A DNA stretch of 64,000 bases from Reyranella massiliensis 521 (GTDB taxonomy: Bacteria > Pseudomonadota > Alphaproteobacteria > Reyranellales > Reyranellaceae), in assembly GCA_945860205.1 (NCBI GenBank), contig CAMARK010000008.1:1-64000 (forward strand), read 5' to 3'. Both the position numbers and the translations under genes were made by a program. Positions 35,110-44,792 of this stretch are shown in pieces (the first letter of the stretch is position 1; the number at the start of each line of letters is the position of its first letter). The notes beneath the pieces are model-generated. The model had not been told where the DNA came from and did no database searches. It was given only the letters and a program-made list of their open reading frames with translations.

Positions 35110-36117
35110 ATGATGAAACGCTGGATTGCACCGCTGGTCGCCCTGCTGGCGGGGGCCTTGCTGCCTCTGCAGGCCGGGGCGCAGACCGCCATCAAGCCCG
35201 CCGTCGTCTACAGCACGGGCGGAAAATTCGACAAATCCTTCAATGAAGGCGTGAGCGAGGGCGCCGAGAAGTTCAAGAAGGAGACGTCGATCGCCGTTGC
35301 CGAGTTCGAGCCCAGCAACGAGACGCAGTTCGAGCAGGCGCTTCGCCGGTTCGCCCAGCGCGGCCAGGATCCCATCATCGCCGTCGGCTTCTCGCAGGCG
35401 GTGGCGCTGGAGAAGATCGCCAAGGAATTCCCCAACGTCCGCTTCACCATCATCGACAGCGTCGTCAACCTGCCCAACGTGCAGTCGGTGGTGTTCAAGG
35501 AGCAGGAAGGCTCCTTCCTGGTCGGCGTGCTGGCCGCACTCGCCTCCAAGAGCGGCAAGATCGGTTTTGTTGGCGGCATGGACATCCCGCTAGTCCGGCG
35601 CTTCCAGTGCGGCTTCGAGCAGGGCATCAAGTACGCCAATCCCAATGCCGAGCTGATCACCAACATGACCGGCACGACGCCGGCTGCGTGGAACGATCCG
35701 GGCCGCGGCGCCGAGCTCGCCAAGGGCCAGTTCGACCGCGGCGTCGACGTGGTCTATGCCGCCGCAGGCTCGACCGGCATCGGAATCCTGCAGGCCGCCA
35801 AGGACCGAGGCAAGCTCGGCATCGGCGTCGATTCCAACCAGAACCACCTGCATCCCGGCACGATGCTGACCTCGATGCTGAAGCGCGTCGATCTCGCCAC
35901 CTACAACAGTTTTAAGGCGGCGCAGACGGGCACATGGAAGGGCGGCGTCCAGGTGCTCGGCCTCAAGGATGGCGGCGTCGACTGGACCCTCGACAAGGAC
36001 AACGAGAAGCTTGTGACGCCGGAGATGAAGGCCAAGGTCGAGGCCGCCAAGGCCGACATCGTGTCGGGCAAGATCGTGGTCCACGACTACATGAGCAACA
36101 ATTCGTGCAAGCCCTGA
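35110..36117 (+). CDS. BMP-family nucleoside-binding protein of ABC importer
   Basis: A 335-residue periplasmic substrate-binding protein of the basic membrane protein (PnrA/BMP) family. It starts with a signal peptide (MMKRWIAPLVALLAGALLPLQAGAQ) without a lipobox cysteine. The core contains the family motifs KFDKSFNEGVSEGAEKF, AVGFSQAVALEKIAKEFPN and GVDSNQNHLHPGTMLTSMLKRVD. BMP proteins bind nucleosides, which fits the downstream genes exactly. The GTG of the ATPase gene lies inside its last 13 bp, so translation is coupled. Confidence 0.93.
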   Translation: MMKRWIAPLVALLAGALLPLQAGAQTAIKPAVVYSTGGKFDKSFNEGVSEGAEKFKKETSIAVAEFEPSNETQFEQALRRFAQRGQDPIIAVGFSQAVALEKIAKEFPNVRFTIIDSVVNLPNVQSVVFKEQEGSFLVGVLAALASKSGKIGFVGGMDIPLVRRFQCGFEQGIKYANPNAELITNMTGTTPAAWNDPGRGAELAKGQFDRGVDVVYAAAGSTGIGILQAAKDRGKLGIGVDSNQNHLHPGTMLTSMLKRVDLATYNSFKAAQTGTWKGGVQVLGLKDGGVDWTLDKDNEKLVTPEMKAKVEAAKADIVSGKIVVHDYMSNNSCKP

Positions 36118-37643
36118 CGCCTGCGGCAGCGGCCATCGAGCTACGCGGGATCGACAAGTCGTTTGGGGTCGTTCATGCCGTTCGCGGTGTGTCGCTCAGG
36201 ATCGAGGCGGGCACGATCACCGGCATCGTGGGCGAGAACGGCGCCGGAAAATCGACGCTGATGAGCATCCTCTACGGCCTCTATCGCGCCGATGCCGGCG
36301 AGATATGGGTCGATGGCCAGCCGGTCGAGATGGCGAGCCCGCGAGACGCCATCGCCCACGGCATCGGCATGGTCCACCAGCATTTCATGCTGATCGATAC
36401 CTTCACCGTGCTCGAGAACATGGTGCTGGGCGCCGAGGGCGGCCTGATGCTGGCGGGCGGCCTCGCGGCGGCACGGGCCGAACTGGAACGGCTGGGGCGC
36501 GACTATGGCCTCACGATCGACCCGGATGCGCGCGTCGCCGATCTTTCCGTTGGCGAGCAGCAGCGGGTCGAAATCCTGAAGGTGCTGTTCCGCGGCGCGC
36601 GGACATTGATCCTCGACGAGCCCAGTGCCGTGCTGACGCCGCAGGAAACCGACCGCCTGTTCCGCATCCTGCAGACGCTGAAGGCGCGCGGCGTGACCGT
36701 CGTGCTGATCACCCACAAGCTGCGGGAGATCATGGCGGCGACTGACCGCGTCTACGTGGTGCGCCAAGGCCAGATCGTGGCCGAGCGCCGCACCATCGAT
36801 ACCGGGACGGAGGATCTGGCCGAGCTGATGGTCGGCCGCAAGGTCCGTCTCGACCTCGACAAGTCGCCATCCCGGCACGGCGAGGTCCTGCTGCAGGCCG
36901 AGCATCTCTCGCTGATCGACGGACGCGGTGTGCGGTTGCTCGACGACATCGGGATCGAGCTGCGCGCCGGCGAGATCGTGGGCATCGCCGGCGTTACCGG
37001 CAACGGACAAAGCGAATTGCTGCAGGTGCTGGCCGGTATCCGCCCGCCGAGCGGTGGCCGGCTGACCGTCTGCGGCCACGCCCTCGATGCGCACCACCCG
37101 GGCAACCCCGCGGAAATGCGCACGCTCGGCCTCGCCCATGTGCCCGAGGACCGGCTGCGCCAGGGCCTGGTGGCAGCGTTCGAGGCTTCGGAAACGTCGA
37201 TCCTGGGCTACCAGGATGGGCCGCCGTTTACCCGCAACTATCTGCTCGACGGGCCGGCCGTCGGCGCCCATTGCGCCCGCCTGATGGAGCGCTTCGATGT
37301 GCGGCCGCGGTCGCCCAGCCTGCGGTCGTCGTCCTTTTCCGGCGGCAACCAACAGAAGCTGGTGCTGGCGCGCGAGATCGCGCGCGAACCCAGGGTTCTG
37401 CTGGTCGGACAGCCGACGCGCGGCGTCGACATCGGCGCCATCGAATTCATCCATCGCGAGCTGGTGAAGGCGCGCGACGCGGGCTGCGCGGTACTGGTCG
37501 TGTCGGTGGAACTCGACGAGATCCTCTCCCTGGCCGACCGCATCCTGGTGATGTTCGCCGGCCGTATCGTGGGGGAGGTCGCCCCGGATCGCGCCGACGA
37601 ACGCCGGCTCGGCCTGATGATGGCGGGCGCCGACGCGGCATGA
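36105..37643 (+). CDS. Nucleoside ABC transporter ATPase (tandem NBD)
   Basis: A 512-residue protein with two ATP-binding domains, as in RbsA/YufO-type importers. NBD1 has Walker A GENGAGKS, signature LSVGEQQR and Walker B LILDEPSAVL. NBD2 has a modified Walker A GVTGNGQS, signature FSGGNQQK and VLLVGQPTRGVD; the replaced Glu/degenerate motif is typical of the second half. It starts at GTG 36105 within the preceding gene and overlaps the next by four bases. It energises uptake by the two permeases downstream. Confidence 0.95.
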   Translation: MQALTPAAAAIELRGIDKSFGVVHAVRGVSLRIEAGTITGIVGENGAGKSTLMSILYGLYRADAGEIWVDGQPVEMASPRDAIAHGIGMVHQHFMLIDTFTVLENMVLGAEGGLMLAGGLAAARAELERLGRDYGLTIDPDARVADLSVGEQQRVEILKVLFRGARTLILDEPSAVLTPQETDRLFRILQTLKARGVTVVLITHKLREIMAATDRVYVVRQGQIVAERRTIDTGTEDLAELMVGRKVRLDLDKSPSRHGEVLLQAEHLSLIDGRGVRLLDDIGIELRAGEIVGIAGVTGNGQSELLQVLAGIRPPSGGRLTVCGHALDAHHPGNPAEMRTLGLAHVPEDRLRQGLVAAFEASETSILGYQDGPPFTRNYLLDGPAVGAHCARLMERFDVRPRSPSLRSSSFSGGNQQKLVLAREIAREPRVLLVGQPTRGVDIGAIEFIHRELVKARDAGCAVLVVSVELDEILSLADRILVMFAGRIVGEVAPDRADERRLGLMMAGADAA

Positions 37644-38740
37644 GGGCGCCCCGTCGTCCTTTGCCGACCTGGGCGGAGATCGTGCTGCTGCCGCTGGTCA
37701 ACATCGCGCTCGCCTTCATCGTCGTCGGCGTGATCGTGGCGATCATCGGTGTCGATCCCTTCCATGCGTTGCGGCTCCTGGTCGTGGGCGCCATAGGGTC
37801 GTCCGAATCGATCGGCTACACGCTCTATTACGCCACCAACTTCGCCTTCACCGGGCTCGCGGTGGCGGTAGCCTTCCATGCCGGCCTGTTCAACATCGGC
37901 GGCGAAGGCCAGGCCTACATCGGTGGCCTGGGCTGCGGCCTCGCCATACTGGCGCTCGATGGCTGGCTGCCGGGCTGGCTCCTGATCCCCCTCGCCATTG
38001 CCGCGTCGGCGCTTTTCGGTGCCGCGTGGGCCGCCGTGCCGGCCTGGGCGCAGGCCTGGCGCGGCAGCCACATCGTCATCACCACCATCATGTTCAACTT
38101 CGTGGCCTCGGCGCTGATGGTCTACCTGATGGTGAACGTGCTGATCGCGCCGGGCTCGATGACACCGCAGAGCCGCACCTTCGCGCCCTCGGGCCGGATT
38201 CCGGCGATGCACGACGCGCTGGCGGCGATTGGCATCACCGTGGCGCCATCGGCCCTCAACCTCACGATCGTGCTGGCGGTGCTGTGCTGCGTGGGCGTCT
38301 GGGTGTTCCTGTGGCACACGCCATGGGGTTATGCGCTGCGCACCATGGGGCACAATCCCGAGGCCGCGATCTATGCCGGCACCAATCCCAGGCGCATGAT
38401 CATGCTCGCCATGTGTCTCTCGGGCGCTCTGGCGGGCTTCGTGGGCGTCAACGAGTTGATGGGTGTGCATCATCGCATCGTGCTCGATTTCCCCGCGGGC
38501 TACGGCTTCGCCGGCATCGCCGTCGCCCTGATGGGGCGTAGCCATCCGCTGGGCATCGCGCTGGCGGCGCTGCTGTTCGGCGCGCTGCAGCAGGGCGGCA
38601 CCGAGCTGGCGTTCGAAATCCCCTCGATCACACGCGAGATGGTGGTGGTGATCCAGGGCCTGGTCATCCTGTTCTCGGGCGCGCTGGCGCACCTGCCGCG
38701 GCCCTGGTTGCAGCTCCTGTTGGCGCGCCGGGCCTCGTGA
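37640..38740 (+). CDS. Nucleoside ABC transporter permease 1
   Basis: A 366-residue BPD-type 2 permease (RbsC/YufP family) with about 9-10 membrane segments. The characteristic FNIGGEGQAYIGG occurs in the first third, and GTNPRRMIMLAMCLSGALAGFVGVNELMG later, as in nucleoside importer permeases. The ATG overlaps the ATPase stop by four bases. Confidence 0.94.
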   Translation: MRAPRRPLPTWAEIVLLPLVNIALAFIVVGVIVAIIGVDPFHALRLLVVGAIGSSESIGYTLYYATNFAFTGLAVAVAFHAGLFNIGGEGQAYIGGLGCGLAILALDGWLPGWLLIPLAIAASALFGAAWAAVPAWAQAWRGSHIVITTIMFNFVASALMVYLMVNVLIAPGSMTPQSRTFAPSGRIPAMHDALAAIGITVAPSALNLTIVLAVLCCVGVWVFLWHTPWGYALRTMGHNPEAAIYAGTNPRRMIMLAMCLSGALAGFVGVNELMGVHHRIVLDFPAGYGFAGIAVALMGRSHPLGIALAALLFGALQQGGTELAFEIPSITREMVVVIQGLVILFSGALAHLPRPWLQLLLARRAS

Positions 38741-39660
38741 TGGACGAGGCCTTCTCCTTCGTCCTGCTGATGCTGGCCTCGACGCTCCGGGTCGCCACGC
38801 CATTGGTGCTCTGCGCCATGGGTGGGCTGTTCTCGGAGAAGAGTGGCATCGTCGACGTCGGCCTCGAAGGCAAGATGCTGATGGCGGCCTTCTTTGCCGC
38901 AGCAACAGCGTCGGTCACCGGCTCGGCCTGGGCAGGCGTCGCCGCGGCCATCCTGGCGGCGGAGGCGCTGGCGCTGCTGCATGGCCTCGCCTGCATCACC
39001 TATCGCGGCAACCAGGTGGTGAGCGGTGTTGCCATCAACATCCTGGCGGCCGGGCTCACCGTCGTCCTCGGCACAGCCTGGTTCGCGCGCGGCGGCCAGA
39101 CACCGCCGCTCCTCGACGGCCAGCGGCTGATGCCGCTCTTCCTGCCGAGGGCGGGGGACAATGTCCTGGTCTATGCCGCGCTACTGTCGGTGCCGCTCAC
39201 CTGGTGGGTCATCGCCCGCACGCGATTTGGCCTCCGCCTGCGCGCCGTGGGTGAGATGCCGCTCGCCGTCGATGCCGCCGGCCTCTCGGTCGCCTGGCTG
39301 CGCTACCGGGCGGTGCTGCTCTGCGGGCTGCTGGCCGGCCTCGCCGGCGCCTATCTGTCGATCGGCCAGAACGCCGGCTTCAGCCGCGACATGACGGCGG
39401 GGCAGGGCTTCATTGCGCTGGCTGCCATCATCTTCGGCAAGTGGCGGCCGCTGCCGGCCTTCGCCGCCTGCCTGATCTTCGGCCTGCTCGATGCCATGGC
39501 CATCCGCCTCCAGGGCGTCCGGGTGCCGGGCGTGGGCGAAGTTCCGGTGCAACTGATCCAGGCCATGCCGTATCTTCTCACCATGTTCCTGCTGGCCGGC
39601 TTCATCGGCCGTGCGATCGCCCCCAAGGCGGCCGGCGTGCCCTACGAGAAAGAGCACTGA
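38740..39660 (+). CDS. Nucleoside ABC transporter permease 2
   Basis: A 306-residue partner permease (YufQ-like). It has GLFSEKSGIVDVGLEGKMLMAAFFAA near the N-terminus and RLRAVGEMPLAVDAAGLSVAWLRYRAVLLCGLLAGLAGAYLSIG, the EAA-like loop of this class. ATG 38740 overlaps the TGA by one base; GTG 38737 three bases earlier is also possible. It completes the importer of BMP, ATPase and two permeases. Confidence 0.94.
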   Translation: MDEAFSFVLLMLASTLRVATPLVLCAMGGLFSEKSGIVDVGLEGKMLMAAFFAAATASVTGSAWAGVAAAILAAEALALLHGLACITYRGNQVVSGVAINILAAGLTVVLGTAWFARGGQTPPLLDGQRLMPLFLPRAGDNVLVYAALLSVPLTWWVIARTRFGLRLRAVGEMPLAVDAAGLSVAWLRYRAVLLCGLLAGLAGAYLSIGQNAGFSRDMTAGQGFIALAAIIFGKWRPLPAFAACLIFGLLDAMAIRLQGVRVPGVGEVPVQLIQAMPYLLTMFLLAGFIGRAIAPKAAGVPYEKEH

Positions 39661-39661
39661 A

Positions 39662-40057
39662 ATGGACGAGCTGCTCCATCTCGCGCGCCGCATGATGCTG
39701 TGCGCCCACGTGCCCTACTCGAAGTTCCATGTCGGCGCGGCGGTGCGCGCCGAGGACGGCACGATCCATGGCGGCTGCAATATCGAGAACGCCGCCTATC
39801 CGCAGGGGCTCTGTGCCGAGGCCTCGGCGATCGCGGCCATGGTGGCGGCCGGCCAGAAGCGTATCCTGGAATGCCTCGTCGTAGGGCCCGGTCCGGAGGT
39901 CATCACGCCCTGTGGCGGCTGCCGCCAGAAGCTGCGTGAGTTTGCCGGCGACGAGCTGCCGGTCCATCTATGCGGTCCCGATGGGTTGCATCGCACCGTG
40001 ACGCTGGGCCAGCTCCTGCCGATGTCGTTCGGCCCGCATCACCTCGGCAAGCCATGA
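39662..40057 (+). CDS. cdd: Cytidine deaminase
   Basis: A 131-residue homotetramer-type cytidine deaminase. Zinc ligands Cys51 in CAE (with catalytic Glu53) and Cys84/Cys87 in PCGGC are intact; SKFHVGAAVRAEDGTIHGGCNIEN is the substrate loop. It converts cytidine and deoxycytidine to uridine and deoxyuridine. One base separates it from the permease stop, so it belongs to the uptake operon, acting on imported nucleosides. Confidence 0.95.
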   Translation: MDELLHLARRMMLCAHVPYSKFHVGAAVRAEDGTIHGGCNIENAAYPQGLCAEASAIAAMVAAGQKRILECLVVGPGPEVITPCGGCRQKLREFAGDELPVHLCGPDGLHRTVTLGQLLPMSFGPHHLGKP

Positions 40058-40845
40058 ACGACGCCATCACCCGCGCGGCGCCCGGCTTTCGGCCGAAGGT
40101 TGCCGTGGTGCTGGGCTCGGGCCTCGGCGAGTTTGCTGACGAGGTGAAGAAAGTCGCCACCATTTCCTACAGCGAGCTGCCAGATTTTCCGCAGACGACC
40201 GTCGGCGGCCACGCCGGCAAGCTGGTCCTGGGCCATGTCGGCCCGACGCCCGTTGCCGTGCTGCAGGGCCGTGCGCACTATTATGAACGCGGCCGCGCCG
40301 ACGAGATGAAAGGCGCCATCGACGCGCTGGCCGGCCTCGGCTGCGAGACGCTGCTGCAGACCAATGCCGCGGGCAGCCTCCGTCTCGACATGCCGCCAGG
40401 CTCGGCCATGGTCATCACCGACCACATCAACTTCACCGGGGTCAACCCGCTGTTCGGCGTGGGATCGGGCAACAATCGTTTCGTCGACATGGTCGATGCC
40501 TACGATCCCGCCTTGGTCAAGAACCTGCTGATGGCCGCCAAGCAGGCCAACGTCCTTTGCCATGACGGTATCTACATGTGGTTCAGCGGTCCCAGTTTCG
40601 AGACACCGGCCGAAATCCGGGCTGCCCGTATCCTGGGCGCTGACGCCGTGGGCATGTCGACCGCACCGGAGACGATCCTGGCACGGCACGCCGGCATGAA
40701 GGTGGTGGCGGTATCGCTGATGACCAACTACGCCGCGGGTCTCGTCCCTGGCACGCTCGCTCACGACCAGACGATCGCCATTGCCAGCTCGGCGTCGGGC
40801 GATATGCGCCGCCTGCTGCGGCTCTTCCTCGAGCAGTACGCCTAG
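40054..40845 (+). CDS. Purine nucleoside phosphorylase
   Basis: A 263-residue class I (trimeric PunA/PNP type) purine nucleoside phosphorylase. It has the phosphate-binding VLGSGLGE, HAGKLVLGHVGPTPVAVLQGR-HYYE, LLQTNAAGSL, the conserved YMWFSGPSFETPAEIRAARILGADAVGMSTAPE and NYAAG. It cleaves (deoxy)inosine/guanosine to base and (deoxy)ribose-1-phosphate. The ATG overlaps the preceding stop by four bases. Its position after the importer fits catabolic use of imported purine nucleosides. Confidence 0.95.
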   Translation: MNDAITRAAPGFRPKVAVVLGSGLGEFADEVKKVATISYSELPDFPQTTVGGHAGKLVLGHVGPTPVAVLQGRAHYYERGRADEMKGAIDALAGLGCETLLQTNAAGSLRLDMPPGSAMVITDHINFTGVNPLFGVGSGNNRFVDMVDAYDPALVKNLLMAAKQANVLCHDGIYMWFSGPSFETPAEIRAARILGADAVGMSTAPETILARHAGMKVVAVSLMTNYAAGLVPGTLAHDQTIAIASSASGDMRRLLRLFLEQYA

Positions 40846-40850
40846 GCCTC

Positions 40851-42173
40851 ATGCTGCCGCAGGAGATCATCCGCCGGAAACGCGACGGCCACGAGCTGTC
40901 GGCGGCGGAGATCGCCTTCATCGTGCGCGGCATCCACGACGGCACCTTGAGCGAGGGCCAGGTCGCCTCATTCGCCATGTCGGTGTTCTTCCGCGGCATG
41001 ACCGTGCCGGAACGCGTGGCACTCACCCTCGGCCTTGCCCGCTCGGGCATCATGCTCGACTGGCGGGATCTCGCACTGCCTGGCCCGGTGATCGACAAGC
41101 ATTCGAGCGGTGGTGTCGGCGACAAGGTGAGCCTGATGCTGGCGCCGATCGTGGCAGCTTGCGGCGGCTTCGTGCCCATGATCTCCGGCCGCGGCCTTGG
41201 CCACACCGGTGGCACGCTCGACAAGCTCTCGGCGATCTCGGGCTACCAGACCCAGCCCGATATCGCGACCTTCCGCCGGATCGTCCGCGAGGTCGGCTGC
41301 GCCGTGATCGGCCAGACCGACGAGCTGGCACCGGCCGACCGTCGGCTCTATGCGGTGCGCGACGTCACCGGCAGCGTCGAGTCGATCCCGCTGCTGGTGA
41401 GTTCGATCCTGTCGAAAAAGGTCGCCGAGGGCCTCGACGGGCTGGTGATGGACGTGAAATGCGGCTCCGGCGCCTTTTGCGACACCGAGGAGATGGCGCG
41501 CGACCTGGCGCAGAGCCTCGTGGCCGTGGCCAACCAGGCGGGCCTGCCCACCATCGCGCTGGTCACCGACATGGACCGGGTGCTGGGCCGCGAAGTCGGC
41601 AATGCGCTCGAGGTCATGGAGGCGGTGGCCTATCTGACCGGCCGCGATACGCGCGAGCCGCGCCTGCACGAGGTGACGATGGCGCTCGCCGGCGAAATGC
41701 TGGCGCTGGGCGGCCTTGTGCCCGACGTTGCCGCCGGTCGCGCGCGGGCCGAGGCGGTGCTGGCCGACGGCCGGGCGGCGGAGGTCTTCGGCCGCATGGT
41801 GTCGGCCCTGGGTGGCCCGGACGACTTCCTCGACCACGCCGGCCGCTATCTGTCGCAGGCGCCGGTAATCAAGGCCTGCACGGCCGAGCGCTCGGGCCAT
41901 GTCGTGGGCATGGATGCGCGCCAGGTCGGCATCGCCGTGGTGGCGCTGGGCGGCGGTCGCGCCCATGCTGACGACGCGATCGATCCATCGGTCGGCCTCA
42001 GCGAAGTGACCGATGTCGGCGTGCCGATCCGGGCCGGCAATCCGCTCTGCATCGTCCATGCCGCGAGCGATGCCGACGCCGATGCGGCCATCGCGCTGGT
42101 CCGCCAGGCCGTCCGCATCGGCGATCAGCCGGTGGCCGAACGGCCCGTTGTCATGGAACGCATCGTCCGATGA
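40851..42173 (+). CDS. deoA: Thymidine phosphorylase
   Basis: A 440-residue pyrimidine nucleoside phosphorylase of the DeoA type. The glycosyltransferase signature is DKHSSGGVGDKVSLMLAPIVAA-CGG and SGRGLGHTGGTLDKLSAI-GYQ, then KKVAEGLDGLVMDVKCGSGAF. The full length and the C-terminal domain (ALGGGRAHADDAIDPSVGL) are complete. It splits thymidine or deoxyuridine to base and deoxyribose-1-phosphate. The gap to the PNP gene is 5 bp and the downstream gene overlaps its stop. Confidence 0.95.
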   Translation: MLPQEIIRRKRDGHELSAAEIAFIVRGIHDGTLSEGQVASFAMSVFFRGMTVPERVALTLGLARSGIMLDWRDLALPGPVIDKHSSGGVGDKVSLMLAPIVAACGGFVPMISGRGLGHTGGTLDKLSAISGYQTQPDIATFRRIVREVGCAVIGQTDELAPADRRLYAVRDVTGSVESIPLLVSSILSKKVAEGLDGLVMDVKCGSGAFCDTEEMARDLAQSLVAVANQAGLPTIALVTDMDRVLGREVGNALEVMEAVAYLTGRDTREPRLHEVTMALAGEMLALGGLVPDVAAGRARAEAVLADGRAAEVFGRMVSALGGPDDFLDHAGRYLSQAPVIKACTAERSGHVVGMDARQVGIAVVALGGGRAHADDAIDPSVGLSEVTDVGVPIRAGNPLCIVHAASDADADAAIALVRQAVRIGDQPVAERPVVMERIVR

Positions 42174-42982
42174 GCGTGCCCGATCTGGCGGCTTACGCGC
42201 GCGACGGCTTTCTGGTCCTGGAAGACTTTCTGCCGCCGGCCGATTGCGACGCGCTGCAGGCGCGGGCGGCGGAACTGGTCGCCGGCTTCGATCCCGGCCC
42301 GGCGCGCACGGTCTTCTCGACCCGCGACCAGGGTCGTGCCCAGGATCTCTACTTCCAGGAATCGGGCGGGGCGATCCGCTTCTTCTTCGAGGAGCAGGCG
42401 ACCGACCAGCCGGTGTCGCTGGCCTTGAACAAGATCGGTCACGCACTGCACGATCTCGATCCCGTCTTCGACCGGGTCTCGCGCCAGCCACGGCTGGCCA
42501 GCCTTGCGCACGCGCTCGGCTTCGTCCGGCCCTTGCTGCTGCAATCCATGTATCTCTTCAAGCAGCCGCGGATCGGCGCAGAGGTCGACTGGCATCAGGA
42601 CGCCACCTACCTGTACACGCGGCCCTCGACGGTGACGGGCTTCTGGATCGCCCTCGACGATGCCGACCAGGACAACGGTTGCCTGATGGCGCTGCCGGGC
42701 GGCCATCAGGGACCACTGCGCCAGCGGTTCCGGCGCGAGAATGGCCGGATGGTCACCCATACGCTTGACTCTATGCCGCGGCCCTCCATTGCGCCGGTGG
42801 CGCTGGAAGCCCGGCGCGGCACACTGGTCGTTCTGCACGGCCTGCTGCCTCACGCCAGCGCGCCTAACCGCTCGTCCCGTGCCCGGCACGCCTATGCCTT
42901 GCATCTGATCGATGGCAGGGCCGATTATCCGATGGACAACTGGCTGCAACGGCCAGACCTGCCGCTGCGAGGTTTCACGTGA
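42170..42982 (+). CDS. PhyH-type 2-oxoglutarate/Fe(II) dioxygenase
   Basis: A 270-residue phytanoyl-CoA dioxygenase-family protein. The iron ligands are His142 and Asp144 in DWHQDATYLY and His228 in LLPHASAPNRS; Arg238 can bind 2-oxoglutarate. The N-terminal FLVLEDFLPPADCDAL is typical of the family. It lies between thymidine phosphorylase and adenosine deaminase with four-base overlaps on both sides, so it is a true operon member. By analogy with fungal nucleoside 2'-hydroxylases of the same superfamily it may oxidise a nucleoside, base or sugar; this is inference. Confidence 0.9.
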   Translation: MSVPDLAAYARDGFLVLEDFLPPADCDALQARAAELVAGFDPGPARTVFSTRDQGRAQDLYFQESGGAIRFFFEEQATDQPVSLALNKIGHALHDLDPVFDRVSRQPRLASLAHALGFVRPLLLQSMYLFKQPRIGAEVDWHQDATYLYTRPSTVTGFWIALDDADQDNGCLMALPGGHQGPLRQRFRRENGRMVTHTLDSMPRPSIAPVALEARRGTLVVLHGLLPHASAPNRSSRARHAYALHLIDGRADYPMDNWLQRPDLPLRGFT

Positions 42983-43938
42983 TTCCCAAGATTGAACTGC
43001 ACTGCCATCTCGAGGGTTCGATCGCGCCCGGGCTCGCGCGCGAGCTGGCCGTCCGTAATGGCCTCGAGCTGCCCAAGGGACTTTTCGGGCCCGACGGCCA
43101 CTATGTGTGGCACGACTTCTGGAGTTTCCTCGCCGCCTACGATCGGGTCTGCACCGTGCTGCGCACGCCGCGCGATTTCGGCGACGTGATCTATTCCTAC
43201 CTTGCCGGTGTGGCCGCCGAAGGGGCGGTCTACGTCGAGATGTTCTGCTCGCCCGAGCGGCCGGCGGCACTAGGCATTTCATACGCAGCATGGCTCGAGG
43301 CGCTGGCCGAGGGCATCGACCGTGCCCGGCGCGAGTTCGGCATCGTGGGCCGCATCATCGTCGTCTGCATCCGCCATCTCGGATCTGAACGCGCTCTGGC
43401 GATCGTGCGCACCATGGTCGCCGAGCCGCATCCTTACGTCGTTGGCTTCGGCATGGGCGGTGACGAGGCGAAGTTCGTGCCCGCCGATTTTACGCCGGCT
43501 TACCGGCTGGCCCACGACAAGGGCTATGGCTGCACCGTCCATGCCGGCGAGGTGGTCGGCCCGGAAAGCGTGTGGGCCGCGATCGACTCCCTGCCGGTGA
43601 CCCGGATCGGCCACGGCGTGCGCTCAGTCGACGATCCCGCGCTGATGGCTGAGCTGGCGCGTCGCGGCACGGTCCTGGAAGTCTGTCCGGGCAGCAACGT
43701 TGCCTTGGGATTGTATCCTGACCGGGCTTCCCATCCGTTGCATCGCTTGATCGCCGCGGGCGTTCCCGTCACGCTCAATTCCGACGATCCGCCGTTCTTC
43801 CACACGACGCTCGGCAACGAATACGACAAGGCGGGTCTCGACGATGCGGCGTTGAGGCATGTCGCGCGAACGGCTGTCGAAGCCTCCTTCGCCGATGAGA
43901 CGACCAAACGAAGATTGTTGAAGGAGATCGGCTCATGA
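42979..43938 (+). CDS. add: Adenosine deaminase
   Basis: A 319-residue adenosine/adenine deaminase of the metallo-dependent hydrolase superfamily. The zinc site is His8 and His10 in IELHCHLEGS, a later His in VHAGE, and Asp in NSDDPPFF; RIGHGVRS holds a further conserved His. It turns adenosine to inosine, feeding the phosphorylase upstream. GTG 42979 overlaps the preceding TGA (GTGA), and its stop overlaps the phosphatase ATG. Confidence 0.93.
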   Translation: MIPKIELHCHLEGSIAPGLARELAVRNGLELPKGLFGPDGHYVWHDFWSFLAAYDRVCTVLRTPRDFGDVIYSYLAGVAAEGAVYVEMFCSPERPAALGISYAAWLEALAEGIDRARREFGIVGRIIVVCIRHLGSERALAIVRTMVAEPHPYVVGFGMGGDEAKFVPADFTPAYRLAHDKGYGCTVHAGEVVGPESVWAAIDSLPVTRIGHGVRSVDDPALMAELARRGTVLEVCPGSNVALGLYPDRASHPLHRLIAAGVPVTLNSDDPPFFHTTLGNEYDKAGLDDAALRHVARTAVEASFADETTKRRLLKEIGS

Positions 43939-44792
43939 TCGCAAGGATCGCTCTGGCGCTCGGCGCCACCCTTTCCGCGCTTCTGTCGCCGGGTGCCGCG
44001 TGGGCGCAGGAGACTCCGCCGCAAAACGACATGTTGCTGGCGACCCTGTGGACCCAGCGGTCCATCGAGTTCAAGGGCAATGCGCTCACGGTCTTCGCCT
44101 TGGCCCGCATCCGCCTCGACGAAGCCCTAGCCGACAAGAACTGGACGGCGTCGCCCGCCGAGCAGAAGGCCGACTACCAGAACCTGCCGCCCGCCGTCAT
44201 TCTCGACATCGATGAGACGCTGCTCGACAACTCGCGCTATCAGGTCTGGATGCTGAAGAACAACCTGACCTTCAGCACCAAGACCTGGAACCAGTTCTGT
44301 GCTGCCCGGGTGTCGACGGCGATTCCGGGAGCGCTGGAATTCGCCAAGTATGCCGATTCCAAAGGCGTGAAGATCTTCTACATCACCAACCGCGGTGCCG
44401 AGACTGAGAAGGACACCCGCGAGAACATGGCCAAGCTCGGCTTCCCGATAGGCGGCAACGTCGACACGTTTCTGATGCAGGGCGAGAAGCCGGAGTGGGG
44501 CGGCGCCAAGGGGAACCGCCGCGCCGTGGTCACCAAGGATTACAGGGTCCTGCTCAACATCGGCGACAACTTCGGCGATTTCGACGACCGCTACCGCGGC
44601 AGCGAGGCCGAGCGGGCCCAGGCGTTCGAAGCCGACATGGCCTATTGGGGCCGCCAGTGGCTGGTGATCGCCAACCCGACTTACGGCTCGTTCGACACGG
44701 CAGCCTTCGGCCATGACTTCAAGAAGCCGCGTGAGGAGCAACGCAAGGCCAAGTGGGATGTGCTGGAGGCGTGGGTGGGCCCCACGCCGTAG
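43935..44792 (+). CDS. HAD acid phosphatase / 5'-nucleotidase, e(P4)-like
   Basis: A 285-residue secreted class C acid phosphatase. The signal peptide ends after AAWA (about residue 24), without a lipobox, unlike the classical lipoprotein e(P4). The HAD motif I is LDIDETLLDNS (Asp91 and Asp93), then TNRGAE and GDNFGDFDDRY supply motifs II-III and the late acidic pair. In the periplasm it would dephosphorylate nucleotides to nucleosides for the BMP importer. It is the last gene of the operon, convergent with the MalK-type gene with one base between the stops. Confidence 0.92.
   Translation: MIARIALALGATLSALLSPGAAWAQETPPQNDMLLATLWTQRSIEFKGNALTVFALARIRLDEALADKNWTASPAEQKADYQNLPPAVILDIDETLLDNSRYQVWMLKNNLTFSTKTWNQFCAARVSTAIPGALEFAKYADSKGVKIFYITNRGAETEKDTRENMAKLGFPIGGNVDTFLMQGEKPEWGGAKGNRRAVVTKDYRVLLNIGDNFGDFDDRYRGSEAERAQAFEADMAYWGRQWLVIANPTYGSFDTAAFGHDFKKPREEQRKAKWDVLEAWVGPTP

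What the first reader, a model, noticed from the sequence alone, without database searches (positions are those of the whole stretch)
42170..42982. A 2-oxoglutarate dioxygenase built into a nucleoside salvage operon
A PhyH-family enzyme with intact His142/Asp144/His228 iron ligands sits between thymidine phosphorylase and adenosine deaminase with 4-bp overlaps on both sides. Known fungal enzymes of the wider superfamily hydroxylate nucleosides (pyrimidine deoxynucleoside 2'-hydroxylase) and thymine. Inference: this enzyme may hydroxylate a nucleoside or base, perhaps a new route for deoxynucleoside or modified-nucleoside use.
Basis: partly seen in the sequence, partly recalled or inferred. Interest (0 to 1): 0.65.

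Follow-up and report, generated by a model that had tools for sequence, protein, structure and literature searches.

The report
Bacterial PHYHD1-type enzyme in nucleoside operon

Summary
ORF 42170-42982 (+) is an intact Fe(II)/2-oxoglutarate dioxygenase between thymidine phosphorylase and adenosine deaminase, with 4-bp overlaps on both sides, in a ten-gene nucleoside import and salvage cluster of a Reyranella-type alphaproteobacterium. Its nearest solved structure by sequence and by fold is human PHYHD1, far ahead of human phytanoyl-CoA hydroxylase. PHYHD1 and several bacterial relatives were shown in December 2025 (PMC12709175) to demethylate free 2'-O-methylnucleosides, not nucleotides or RNA. 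The window protein keeps the four ribose-contact residues proposed for PHYHD1 (K88, H91, Q125, W258), nearly invariant in 47 clade members and rare in the genome's 11 other PhyH proteins. The gene has nucleoside neighbours in 22 of 38 alphaproteobacterial genomes that carry it, in different gene orders, and tracks the operon's permease (35 of 38 genomes against 60 of 347). Best reading: a 2'-O-methylribonucleoside demethylase feeding RNA-derived nucleosides into salvage. Activity was not tested here. The enzyme activity is known; the conserved bacterial operon context was not found in print.

The parts
42170..42982 (+). PHYHD1-type Fe(II)/2OG dioxygenase, predicted 2'-O-methylribonucleoside demethylase (270 aa)
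40851..42173 (+). deoA, thymidine phosphorylase; overlaps the dioxygenase by 4 bp
   Evidence: TIGR02643 above cut-off; overlap read
42979..43938 (+). add, adenosine deaminase; overlaps the dioxygenase by 4 bp
   Evidence: TIGR01430 above cut-off; overlap read
43935..44792 (+). HAD acid phosphatase / 5'-nucleotidase related to lipoprotein e(P4); likely removes phosphate outside the cytoplasm (inference)
   Evidence: PF03767 135.5 bits, above cut-off; TIGR01533 190 bits, below its cut-off of 216; 4-bp overlap with add
40054..40845 (+). purine nucleoside phosphorylase
   Evidence: NF006054 above cut-off
39662..40057 (+). cdd, cytidine deaminase
   Evidence: TIGR01354 and NF004064 above cut-off
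38737..39660 (+). ABC permease 2 (perm2) of the BMP-type transporter, presumed for nucleosides
   Evidence: PF02653 above cut-off; nearest NCBIfam model is a putative B6 transporter permease, far below its cut-off (155 of 465 bits)
37640..38740 (+). ABC permease 1 of the BMP-type transporter
   Evidence: PF02653 above cut-off; NCBIfam B6 permease model 135 of 400 bits
36105..37643 (+). ABC ATPase of the transporter (start codon approximate)
   Evidence: PF00005 above cut-off; NCBIfam B6 ATPase model 430 of 670 bits
35110..36117 (+). BMP/PnrA-type substrate-binding protein (start codon chosen by eye)
   Evidence: PF02608 227 bits, above cut-off; start chosen; NCBIfam B6 model 77 of 400 bits

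Best explanation
The gene encodes a PHYHD1-type Fe(II)/2-oxoglutarate oxygenase that demethylates free 2'-O-methylribonucleosides (Cm, Um, Am, Gm, Im and similar) taken up from RNA turnover. Inferred steps: (1) the e(P4)-like phosphatase at the operon's end dephosphorylates nucleotides outside the cytoplasm; (2) the BMP-type ABC transporter imports the nucleosides; (3) the dioxygenase binds Fe(II) by H142/D144/H228 and 2OG with R239, holds the ribose with K88/H91/Q125/W258, stacks the base on Y147, and hydroxylates the 2'-O-methyl carbon; the hemiacetal falls apart to formaldehyde and the plain ribonucleoside, while 2OG becomes succinate and CO2; (4) cdd, add and the phosphorylases then process the freed nucleoside. 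Shown here: the gene, the operon, clade membership, conservation of the residues, and repeated linkage to nucleoside genes. Shown in print for relatives: the reaction and its restriction to unphosphorylated nucleosides. Inferred: that this protein does it, and steps 1, 2 and 4.
For: Best sequence hit in the PDB is human PHYHD1 over residues 4-261 (E 8.7e-58; next hit 4.2e-15), also with the clade profile (5.7e-85 against 9.1e-18). The predicted model (mean pLDDT 85) matches PHYHD1 3obz at TMq 0.88 with 41% identity, human PHYH at 0.64. PHYHD1 and bacterial, plant, fungal and viral relatives demethylate 2'-O-methylnucleosides; docking names K102/H105/Q139/W277 as ribose contacts and F161 (Tyr in bacterial enzymes) as the base stacker (PMC12709175). 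By the alignment these are K88/H91/Q125/W258 and Y147 here. K/H/Q/W occur in 47/46/47/45 of 47 clade proteins against 0/0/2/1 of 11 PhyH paralogues of the same genome, while Fe/2OG residues are in 47 of 47 and 11 of 11. Nucleoside-gene neighbours: 22 of 38 class genomes with the gene; 0 of 11 paralogue neighbourhoods and 0 of 9 arbitrary stretches (generic ABC ATPase hits set aside). Co-occurrence with the operon's permease 2: 35 of 38 against 60 of 347. A control permease from another gene set of the window: 18 of 38 against 43 of 347, and no significant association with the gene among genomes that have permease 2 (p 0.29).
Against: No activity was measured. 16 of 34 class hits outside the own genus, 5 of 6 new phylum hits and 3 of the 4 strong hits outside the genus in the GTDB scan have no marked nucleoside neighbours in the stretch examined, though several stretches are cut by contig ends. 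The residue mapping rests on published docking, not on a substrate complex; for 7 of 11 paralogues the K88 and H91 columns are gaps, so that part of the contrast reflects a differing region rather than a substitution. [quoted passage not shown] The helix at the pocket mouth lies in a low-confidence stretch (residues 50-60 under 50). The near NCBIfam models of the transporter are 'putative B6' ones, all below cut-off, so its nucleoside specificity is inferred. The operon's only pyrimidine phosphorylase is a thymidine phosphorylase; a uridine phosphorylase was only weakly found (E 2.2e-5), and no RihB-like hydrolase or DeoB was found in this genome with E. coli queries, so the fate of uridine is unclear. 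The control permease is also enriched (odds ratio 6.4), so part of the co-occurrence is a general genome effect.
Confidence: 0.86

Rival explanations
1. It hydroxylates 2'-deoxynucleosides at C2' (like fungal pyrimidine deoxynucleoside 2'-hydroxylase), converting deoxy- to ribonucleosides for salvage.
For: It lies beside deoA, and in some relatives in one cluster with deoC and deoB. Superfamily precedent in Neurospora is cited in PMC12709175. The position attacked, at or next to C2', is close in space.
Against: The sequence belongs with PHYHD1, shown in print to be a demethylase. The clade profile found no PDB entry named as a nucleoside or thymine hydroxylase at E<=1. The reaction would bypass the deoA/deoC route next door (inference).
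Confidence: 0.04
2. It demethylates or hydroxylates another modified nucleoside found in RNA (N- or C-methylated base, 5-methyl pyrimidine), with the 2'-O-methyl activity secondary.
For: Nucleoside context. The base position Y147 varies as F/Y/W in the clade (32/14/1 of 47), so base specificity could differ.
Against: In the published substrate table only the 2'-O-methyl group is lost from N6,2'-O-dimethyladenosine and N4,2'-O-dimethylcytidine. The ribose contacts are the conserved part here.
Confidence: 0.05
3. It is a generic PhyH hydroxylase of a small molecule (amino acid, ectoine, acyl-CoA) that happens to lie in the operon.
For: PhyH is a large, functionally mixed family; this genome has 12 members. 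24 of 47 clade members have no marked nucleoside neighbours.
Against: Conserved place in 24 of 24 genus loci, other gene orders in other families, permease co-occurrence, 0 of 11 paralogues in such a setting, and clade separation from the 11 paralogues (support 100/99).
Confidence: 0.04

Closest known systems
PHYHD1 (human, zebrafish, fly) 2'-O-methylnucleoside demethylase
   Same: Full-length similarity, fold, iron ligands, and all four proposed ribose contacts.
   Different: Here it lies in a bacterial import and salvage operon; S154 of the human enzyme is D140 here and Phe161 is Tyr147.
FJS and other bacterial PHYH-like demethylases (Acidisoma, Sphingomonas, Poribacteria)
   Same: Bacterial PhyH-family enzymes of this reaction in print.
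   Different: FJS has helices made by C-terminal residues over the pocket; the model here shows none after residue 248. FJS itself was not aligned here.
Human PHYH (phytanoyl-CoA 2-hydroxylase)
   Same: PF05721 fold, related active site.
   Different: Much weaker match (E 8.6e-12 against 8.7e-58; TMq 0.64 against 0.88); PHYH showed no 2'-O-methylnucleoside activity in print.
RK9NH/RK9DPA, nucleoside hydrolase plus aldolase for 2'-O-methyluridine
   Same: A bacterial gene pair proposed for use of 2'-O-methylnucleosides (PMC6278475, passages).
   Different: Cleaves the glycosidic bond; the word dioxygenase does not occur in that paper's text.
Neurospora pyrimidine deoxynucleoside 2'-hydroxylase and thymine 7-hydroxylase
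   Same: Fe/2OG oxygenases of free nucleosides or bases (the first named; the second recalled).
   Different: No entry so named in the PDB profile search; their family was not tested directly.

Membership tests
PHYHD1-type 2'-O-methylnucleoside demethylase | PhyH domain over the whole protein | tested here: met
   PF05721 158.5 bits, profile positions 1-213 of 213
PHYHD1-type 2'-O-methylnucleoside demethylase | HxD...H iron triad and 2OG-binding Arg | tested here: met
   H142, D144, H228, R239 in 47 of 47 clade proteins; the role of R239 is recalled
PHYHD1-type 2'-O-methylnucleoside demethylase | Ribose contacts K102, H105, Q139, W277 (human numbering) | tested here: met
   K88, H91, Q125, W258 by the alignment; 47/46/47/45 of 47 clade proteins against 0/0/2/1 of 11 paralogues
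PHYHD1-type 2'-O-methylnucleoside demethylase | Aromatic base stacker F161 (Tyr in bacterial demethylases) | tested here: met
   Y147; F 32, Y 14, W 1 of 47; rule from PMC12709175
PHYHD1-type 2'-O-methylnucleoside demethylase | Closer to PHYHD1 than to PHYH and other PhyH enzymes | tested here: met
   clade apart from 11 paralogues (100/99). Human PHYHD1 itself was not in the tree
PHYHD1-type 2'-O-methylnucleoside demethylase | Extra helix alpha4 at the pocket mouth (human 56-71) | tested here: inconclusive
   Helix 57-63 predicted, but residues 50-60 have pLDDT under 50
PHYHD1-type 2'-O-methylnucleoside demethylase | 2OG-dependent demethylation of free 2'-O-methylnucleosides | not testable with these tools
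   Needs an enzyme assay
FJS subtype | C-terminal helices over the pocket | tested here: not met
   No helix after residue 248 in the model, though the last ten residues have pLDDT about 63
Fe/2OG halogenase (chlorinating enzyme TIGR01762) | Gly/Ala in place of the Asp iron ligand; score over cut-off | tested here: not met
   D144 present; 22.3 bits against cut-off 226.3; the Gly/Ala rule is recalled
Fungal deoxynucleoside 2'-hydroxylase / thymine 7-hydroxylase | Membership of that oxygenase family | tested here: inconclusive
   Only Pfam hit is PF05721; none named so among 37 PDB hits at E<=1; no direct comparison with the fungal sequences was made

The most novel reading that the evidence does not exclude
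Many Alphaproteobacteria run a dedicated route for ribose-methylated nucleosides from environmental RNA. A PHYHD1-type demethylase has been recruited several times into BMP-type nucleoside import and salvage clusters, so 2'-O-methylnucleosides, otherwise a dead end, become a normal source of base, ribose and possibly one-carbon units (formaldehyde).
Probability: 0.55. Interest if true: 0.6.

Novelty: new member of a known kind. Interest (0 to 1): 0.5.

Why it matters
The demethylase activity of PHYHD1-like enzymes has only just been published, and neither the parts of that paper read here (7 of 9) nor a term search of its whole main text showed a discussion of where the bacterial genes lie. 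The conserved operon suggests a physiological role for the bacterial enzymes (salvage of RNA-derived modified nucleosides), makes that role directly testable by gene removal and growth on 2'-O-methylnucleosides, offers a four-residue signature that may separate likely demethylases from the many 'phytanoyl-CoA dioxygenase' annotations, and argues that handling free 2'-O-methylnucleosides is a task shared by bacteria and animals.

Tried and rejected
Rejected: phytanoyl-CoA hydroxylase (weaker in sequence and fold); ectoine hydroxylase and methylphosphonate hydroxylase (about 22 bits against cut-offs of 336.5 and 500); halogenase (Asp ligand present); deoxynucleoside or thymine hydroxylase (not favoured; not excluded). 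No PHROG hit at E<=0.001. Led nowhere: promoter and terminator scan (0 promoter-like sites; 8 terminator-like sites against 4.7 with sd 2.0 in shuffles). Literature searches for the operon in print: 0 papers; 1, the NAR paper; 2, the NAR paper and PMC6278475; 5 listed, none on this topic by title and start of abstract; 1, on BCG, seen as listing and start of abstract only. On the fungal hydroxylase, searches gave 0 papers.

Limits: the clade was picked by similarity to 11 sequences that include the window protein, so the residue counts are not independent of the selection. Dropped before counts: L091 (a partial 32% hit) and G016 (own genus, its locus counted but not among the 47). Genomes were treated as independent, beyond a repeat without the own genus (31 of 34 against 60 of 347). 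Marker cut-offs were E<=1e-4 and E<=1e-20. Gene finding was a simple greedy method; annotated 30 chosen proteins next to 21 of the 24 clade members without nucleoside markers (L131, L134 and L169 not looked at) and to L127. The control protein was called an ABC permease by eye; no family search was run on it. Four paralogues have long branches in the tree.
Full report
THE OBSERVATION. The ORF is real: 270 codons at 42170-42982 on the + strand, overlapping deoA and add by 4 bp each (ATGA and GTGA). It is a full-length PhyH protein (PF05721, 158.5 bits). The gene chain around it reads: BMP-type binding protein, ABC ATPase, two permeases, cytidine deaminase, purine nucleoside phosphorylase, thymidine phosphorylase, the dioxygenase, adenosine deaminase, and a HAD phosphatase related to the e(P4) 5'-nucleotidase. 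The e(P4) assignment is by Pfam above cut-off and by NCBIfam below its cut-off (190 against 216 bits). For the four transporter genes the best NCBIfam model is a 'putative B6' transporter, each far below its cut-off; that they carry nucleosides is inferred from the Bmp/PnrA family and the operon. The window lies in a 4.98-Mb genome. Many of the closest public records are titled Reyranella, among them R. massiliensis and R. soli; some MAG titles name other genera.

WHAT THE PROTEIN IS. Among solved structures the best sequence match is human PHYHD1, E 8.7e-58 over residues 4-261, with the next hit at 4.2e-15 and human PHYH at 8.6e-12. A profile of 17 sequences (window protein included) gives 5.7e-85 for PHYHD1 and 9.1e-18 for the next. 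An AlphaFold2 model from the same 17 sequences has mean pLDDT 85 and matches PHYHD1 at TMq 0.88 with 41% identity, PHYH at 0.64.

WHAT PHYHD1 DOES. In December 2025 Stonkus and colleagues (PMC12709175; I read parts 1 to 7 of 9 of the text, and searched it by terms; supplements not read) reported that the bacterial dioxygenase FJS, human PHYHD1 and relatives from animals, fungi, plants, bacteria and a giant virus remove the methyl group of free 2'-O-methylnucleosides; for FJS the dependence on 2OG and the formation of formaldehyde were shown. Mono- and triphosphates, 3'-O-methyluridine and 3'-terminal methylated RNA were not substrates. Some tested relatives, human PHYH among them, were inactive, and one acted on 2'-O-methylguanosine only (Figure 2 legend). 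Zebrafish without phyhd1 accumulate free 2'-O-methylnucleosides. Docking put the ribose between K102, H105, Q139 and W277, and the base on F161, which is tyrosine in bacterial demethylases. The alignment places these at K88, H91, Q125, W258 and Y147 of the window protein.

RESIDUE TEST. I compared 47 proteins of this clade (the window's, 36 others from the class sample, six, four) with the 11 other PhyH proteins of the same genome. K88, H91, Q125 and W258 are present in 47, 46, 47 and 45 of 47 clade proteins, and in 0, 0, 2 and 1 of 11 paralogues (in 7 of 11 the K88 and H91 columns are gaps). The iron and 2OG residues are in all of both sets. The 47 form one group against the 11 paralogues with support 100/99. 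Position 147 is F in 32, Y in 14 and W in 1 of 47. The clade was gathered by similarity, so this is a consistency test with a contrast, not an independent proof.

CONSERVATION IN THE GENUS. 24 of 25 same-genus genomes (own included) hold the gene at 69% identity or more; all 24 have it between deoA and add. In the one miss, G007, which is 73% complete, the contig ends inside deoA, so absence is not shown. In the GTDB scan, 48 of 53 loci are of this operon type; add follows in 48 of 48 and deoA precedes in 47 of 48, the exception starting at the gene. The two sets overlap in part. Another genus of the family (G210) has neither the gene nor the permease at the cut-offs used, though it has a deoA (63% identity).

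BEYOND THE GENUS. With a profile of 11 sequences, 38 of 385 alphaproteobacterial genomes (27 of 276 genera) hold a clade member, and 9 of 398 genomes of the phylum sample, three of them already in the class sample. Of the 38, 22 have nucleoside genes in the stretch examined (up to about 8 kb each side): 4 of 4 of the own genus and 18 of 34 others. The orders differ: deoA-X-add-e(P4) in the genus; deoA-X-e(P4) without add (L132); deoB-X-add, with deoC in the same cluster (L102, L103, L164); deoB-X without add (L104, L107-L109); X first, then BMP-ABC-permeases-cdd-pnp-deoC (L114, L116, L118, L130); X beside a RihB-type hydrolase and psuG (L127; IU_nuc_hydro); X divergent from BMP (L121). The phylum sample adds one more of six new genomes (G644, L164), and an Acidimicrobiia contig carries the ABC ATPase and the two permeases upstream (L086). 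On the tree of 47 plus 11, starred branches force at least 3 changes of the nucleoside-context label, so the linkage arose or was lost several times. The other 24 of 47 members have no such marker. For 21 of these 24, chosen neighbours were annotated and look unrelated, such as chorismate synthase, aldehyde dehydrogenase or a histidine kinase. Several of these stretches are cut by contig ends.

CONTROLS. Around the 11 PhyH paralogues of the own genome and in 9 arbitrary stretches none of the nucleoside markers was found, apart from generic ABC ATPase hits and the PhyH genes themselves. Permease 2 of this operon occurs in 35 of 38 genomes with the gene and in 60 of 347 without (odds ratio 56). 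A control protein from a neighbouring minus-strand gene set, an ABC permease by eye, gives 18 of 38 and 43 of 347 (odds ratio 6.4), which shows a general lifestyle or genome-size effect. Within control-positive and control-negative genomes the link to permease 2 stays (18 of 18 against 24 of 43; 17 of 20 against 36 of 304), and among genomes with permease 2 the control has no significant link to the gene (p 0.29). So the gene tends to go with this transporter even where it is not next to it. 60 genomes with permease 2 lack the gene, so it is an accessory to the salvage route, not part of its core.

HOW IT MOST LIKELY WORKS. External RNA and nucleotides are dephosphorylated by the e(P4)-like enzyme (inference); this step would make sense because the demethylases in print do not accept nucleotides. 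The ABC system imports nucleosides (inference from family). The dioxygenase frees the 2'-OH with release of formaldehyde (activity shown in relatives only). The deaminases and phosphorylases then take over (inference). Weak point: the operon has a thymidine phosphorylase but no clear uridine phosphorylase; the genome search gave only a weak hit (E 2.2e-5) and no RihB or DeoB match with E. coli queries, while the same RihB and DeoB queries did find matches in other Alphaproteobacteria. Either this DeoA accepts uridine or another enzyme does the job.

That the enzyme acts on a nucleoside and serves modified-nucleoside use is supported by context and relatedness. Hydroxylation of deoxynucleosides or thymine is not excluded by experiment but is disfavoured by relatedness to PHYHD1 and by the logic of the deo route beside it.

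NOVELTY. The enzyme kind is known since 2025, and a bacterial hydrolase cluster for 2'-O-methyluridine was proposed in 2018 (PMC6278475, passages only). What I did not find in print (searches; full-text term finds 14 and 62 in the NAR paper) is the repeated linkage of PHYHD1-type genes to nucleoside import and salvage operons in Alphaproteobacteria. The library holds open-licence papers only. I rate it a new member of a known kind with an informative setting.

Noticed in passing
L127 8023-10740 (G185, 1.6-Mb alphaproteobacterial genome): PHYHD1-type gene next to a RihB-type nucleoside hydrolase and, on the other strand, a psuG-like pseudouridine-5'-phosphate glycosidase: it looks like a small cluster for modified nucleosides.
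   Followed up: partly
L119 and L120 (two genomes of one genus, g161): PHYHD1-type gene beside an aldehyde dehydrogenase; perhaps linked to the aldehyde made by demethylation, untested.
   Followed up: no
L086 3-5323 (Acidimicrobiia contig): An actinobacterial relative (55% identity) downstream of an ABC ATPase and two permeases related to those of the window; the contig ends at the gene.
   Followed up: partly
window 35110-44792, whole genome G000: No DeoB or RihB match and only a weak uridine phosphorylase match in the genome with E. coli queries, so the fate of uridine and ribose-1-phosphate is unexplained.
   Followed up: partly
G000, 12 places: Twelve PhyH-family genes in one 4.98-Mb genome; the other 11 have no nucleoside markers nearby and their substrates are unknown.
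   Followed up: partly
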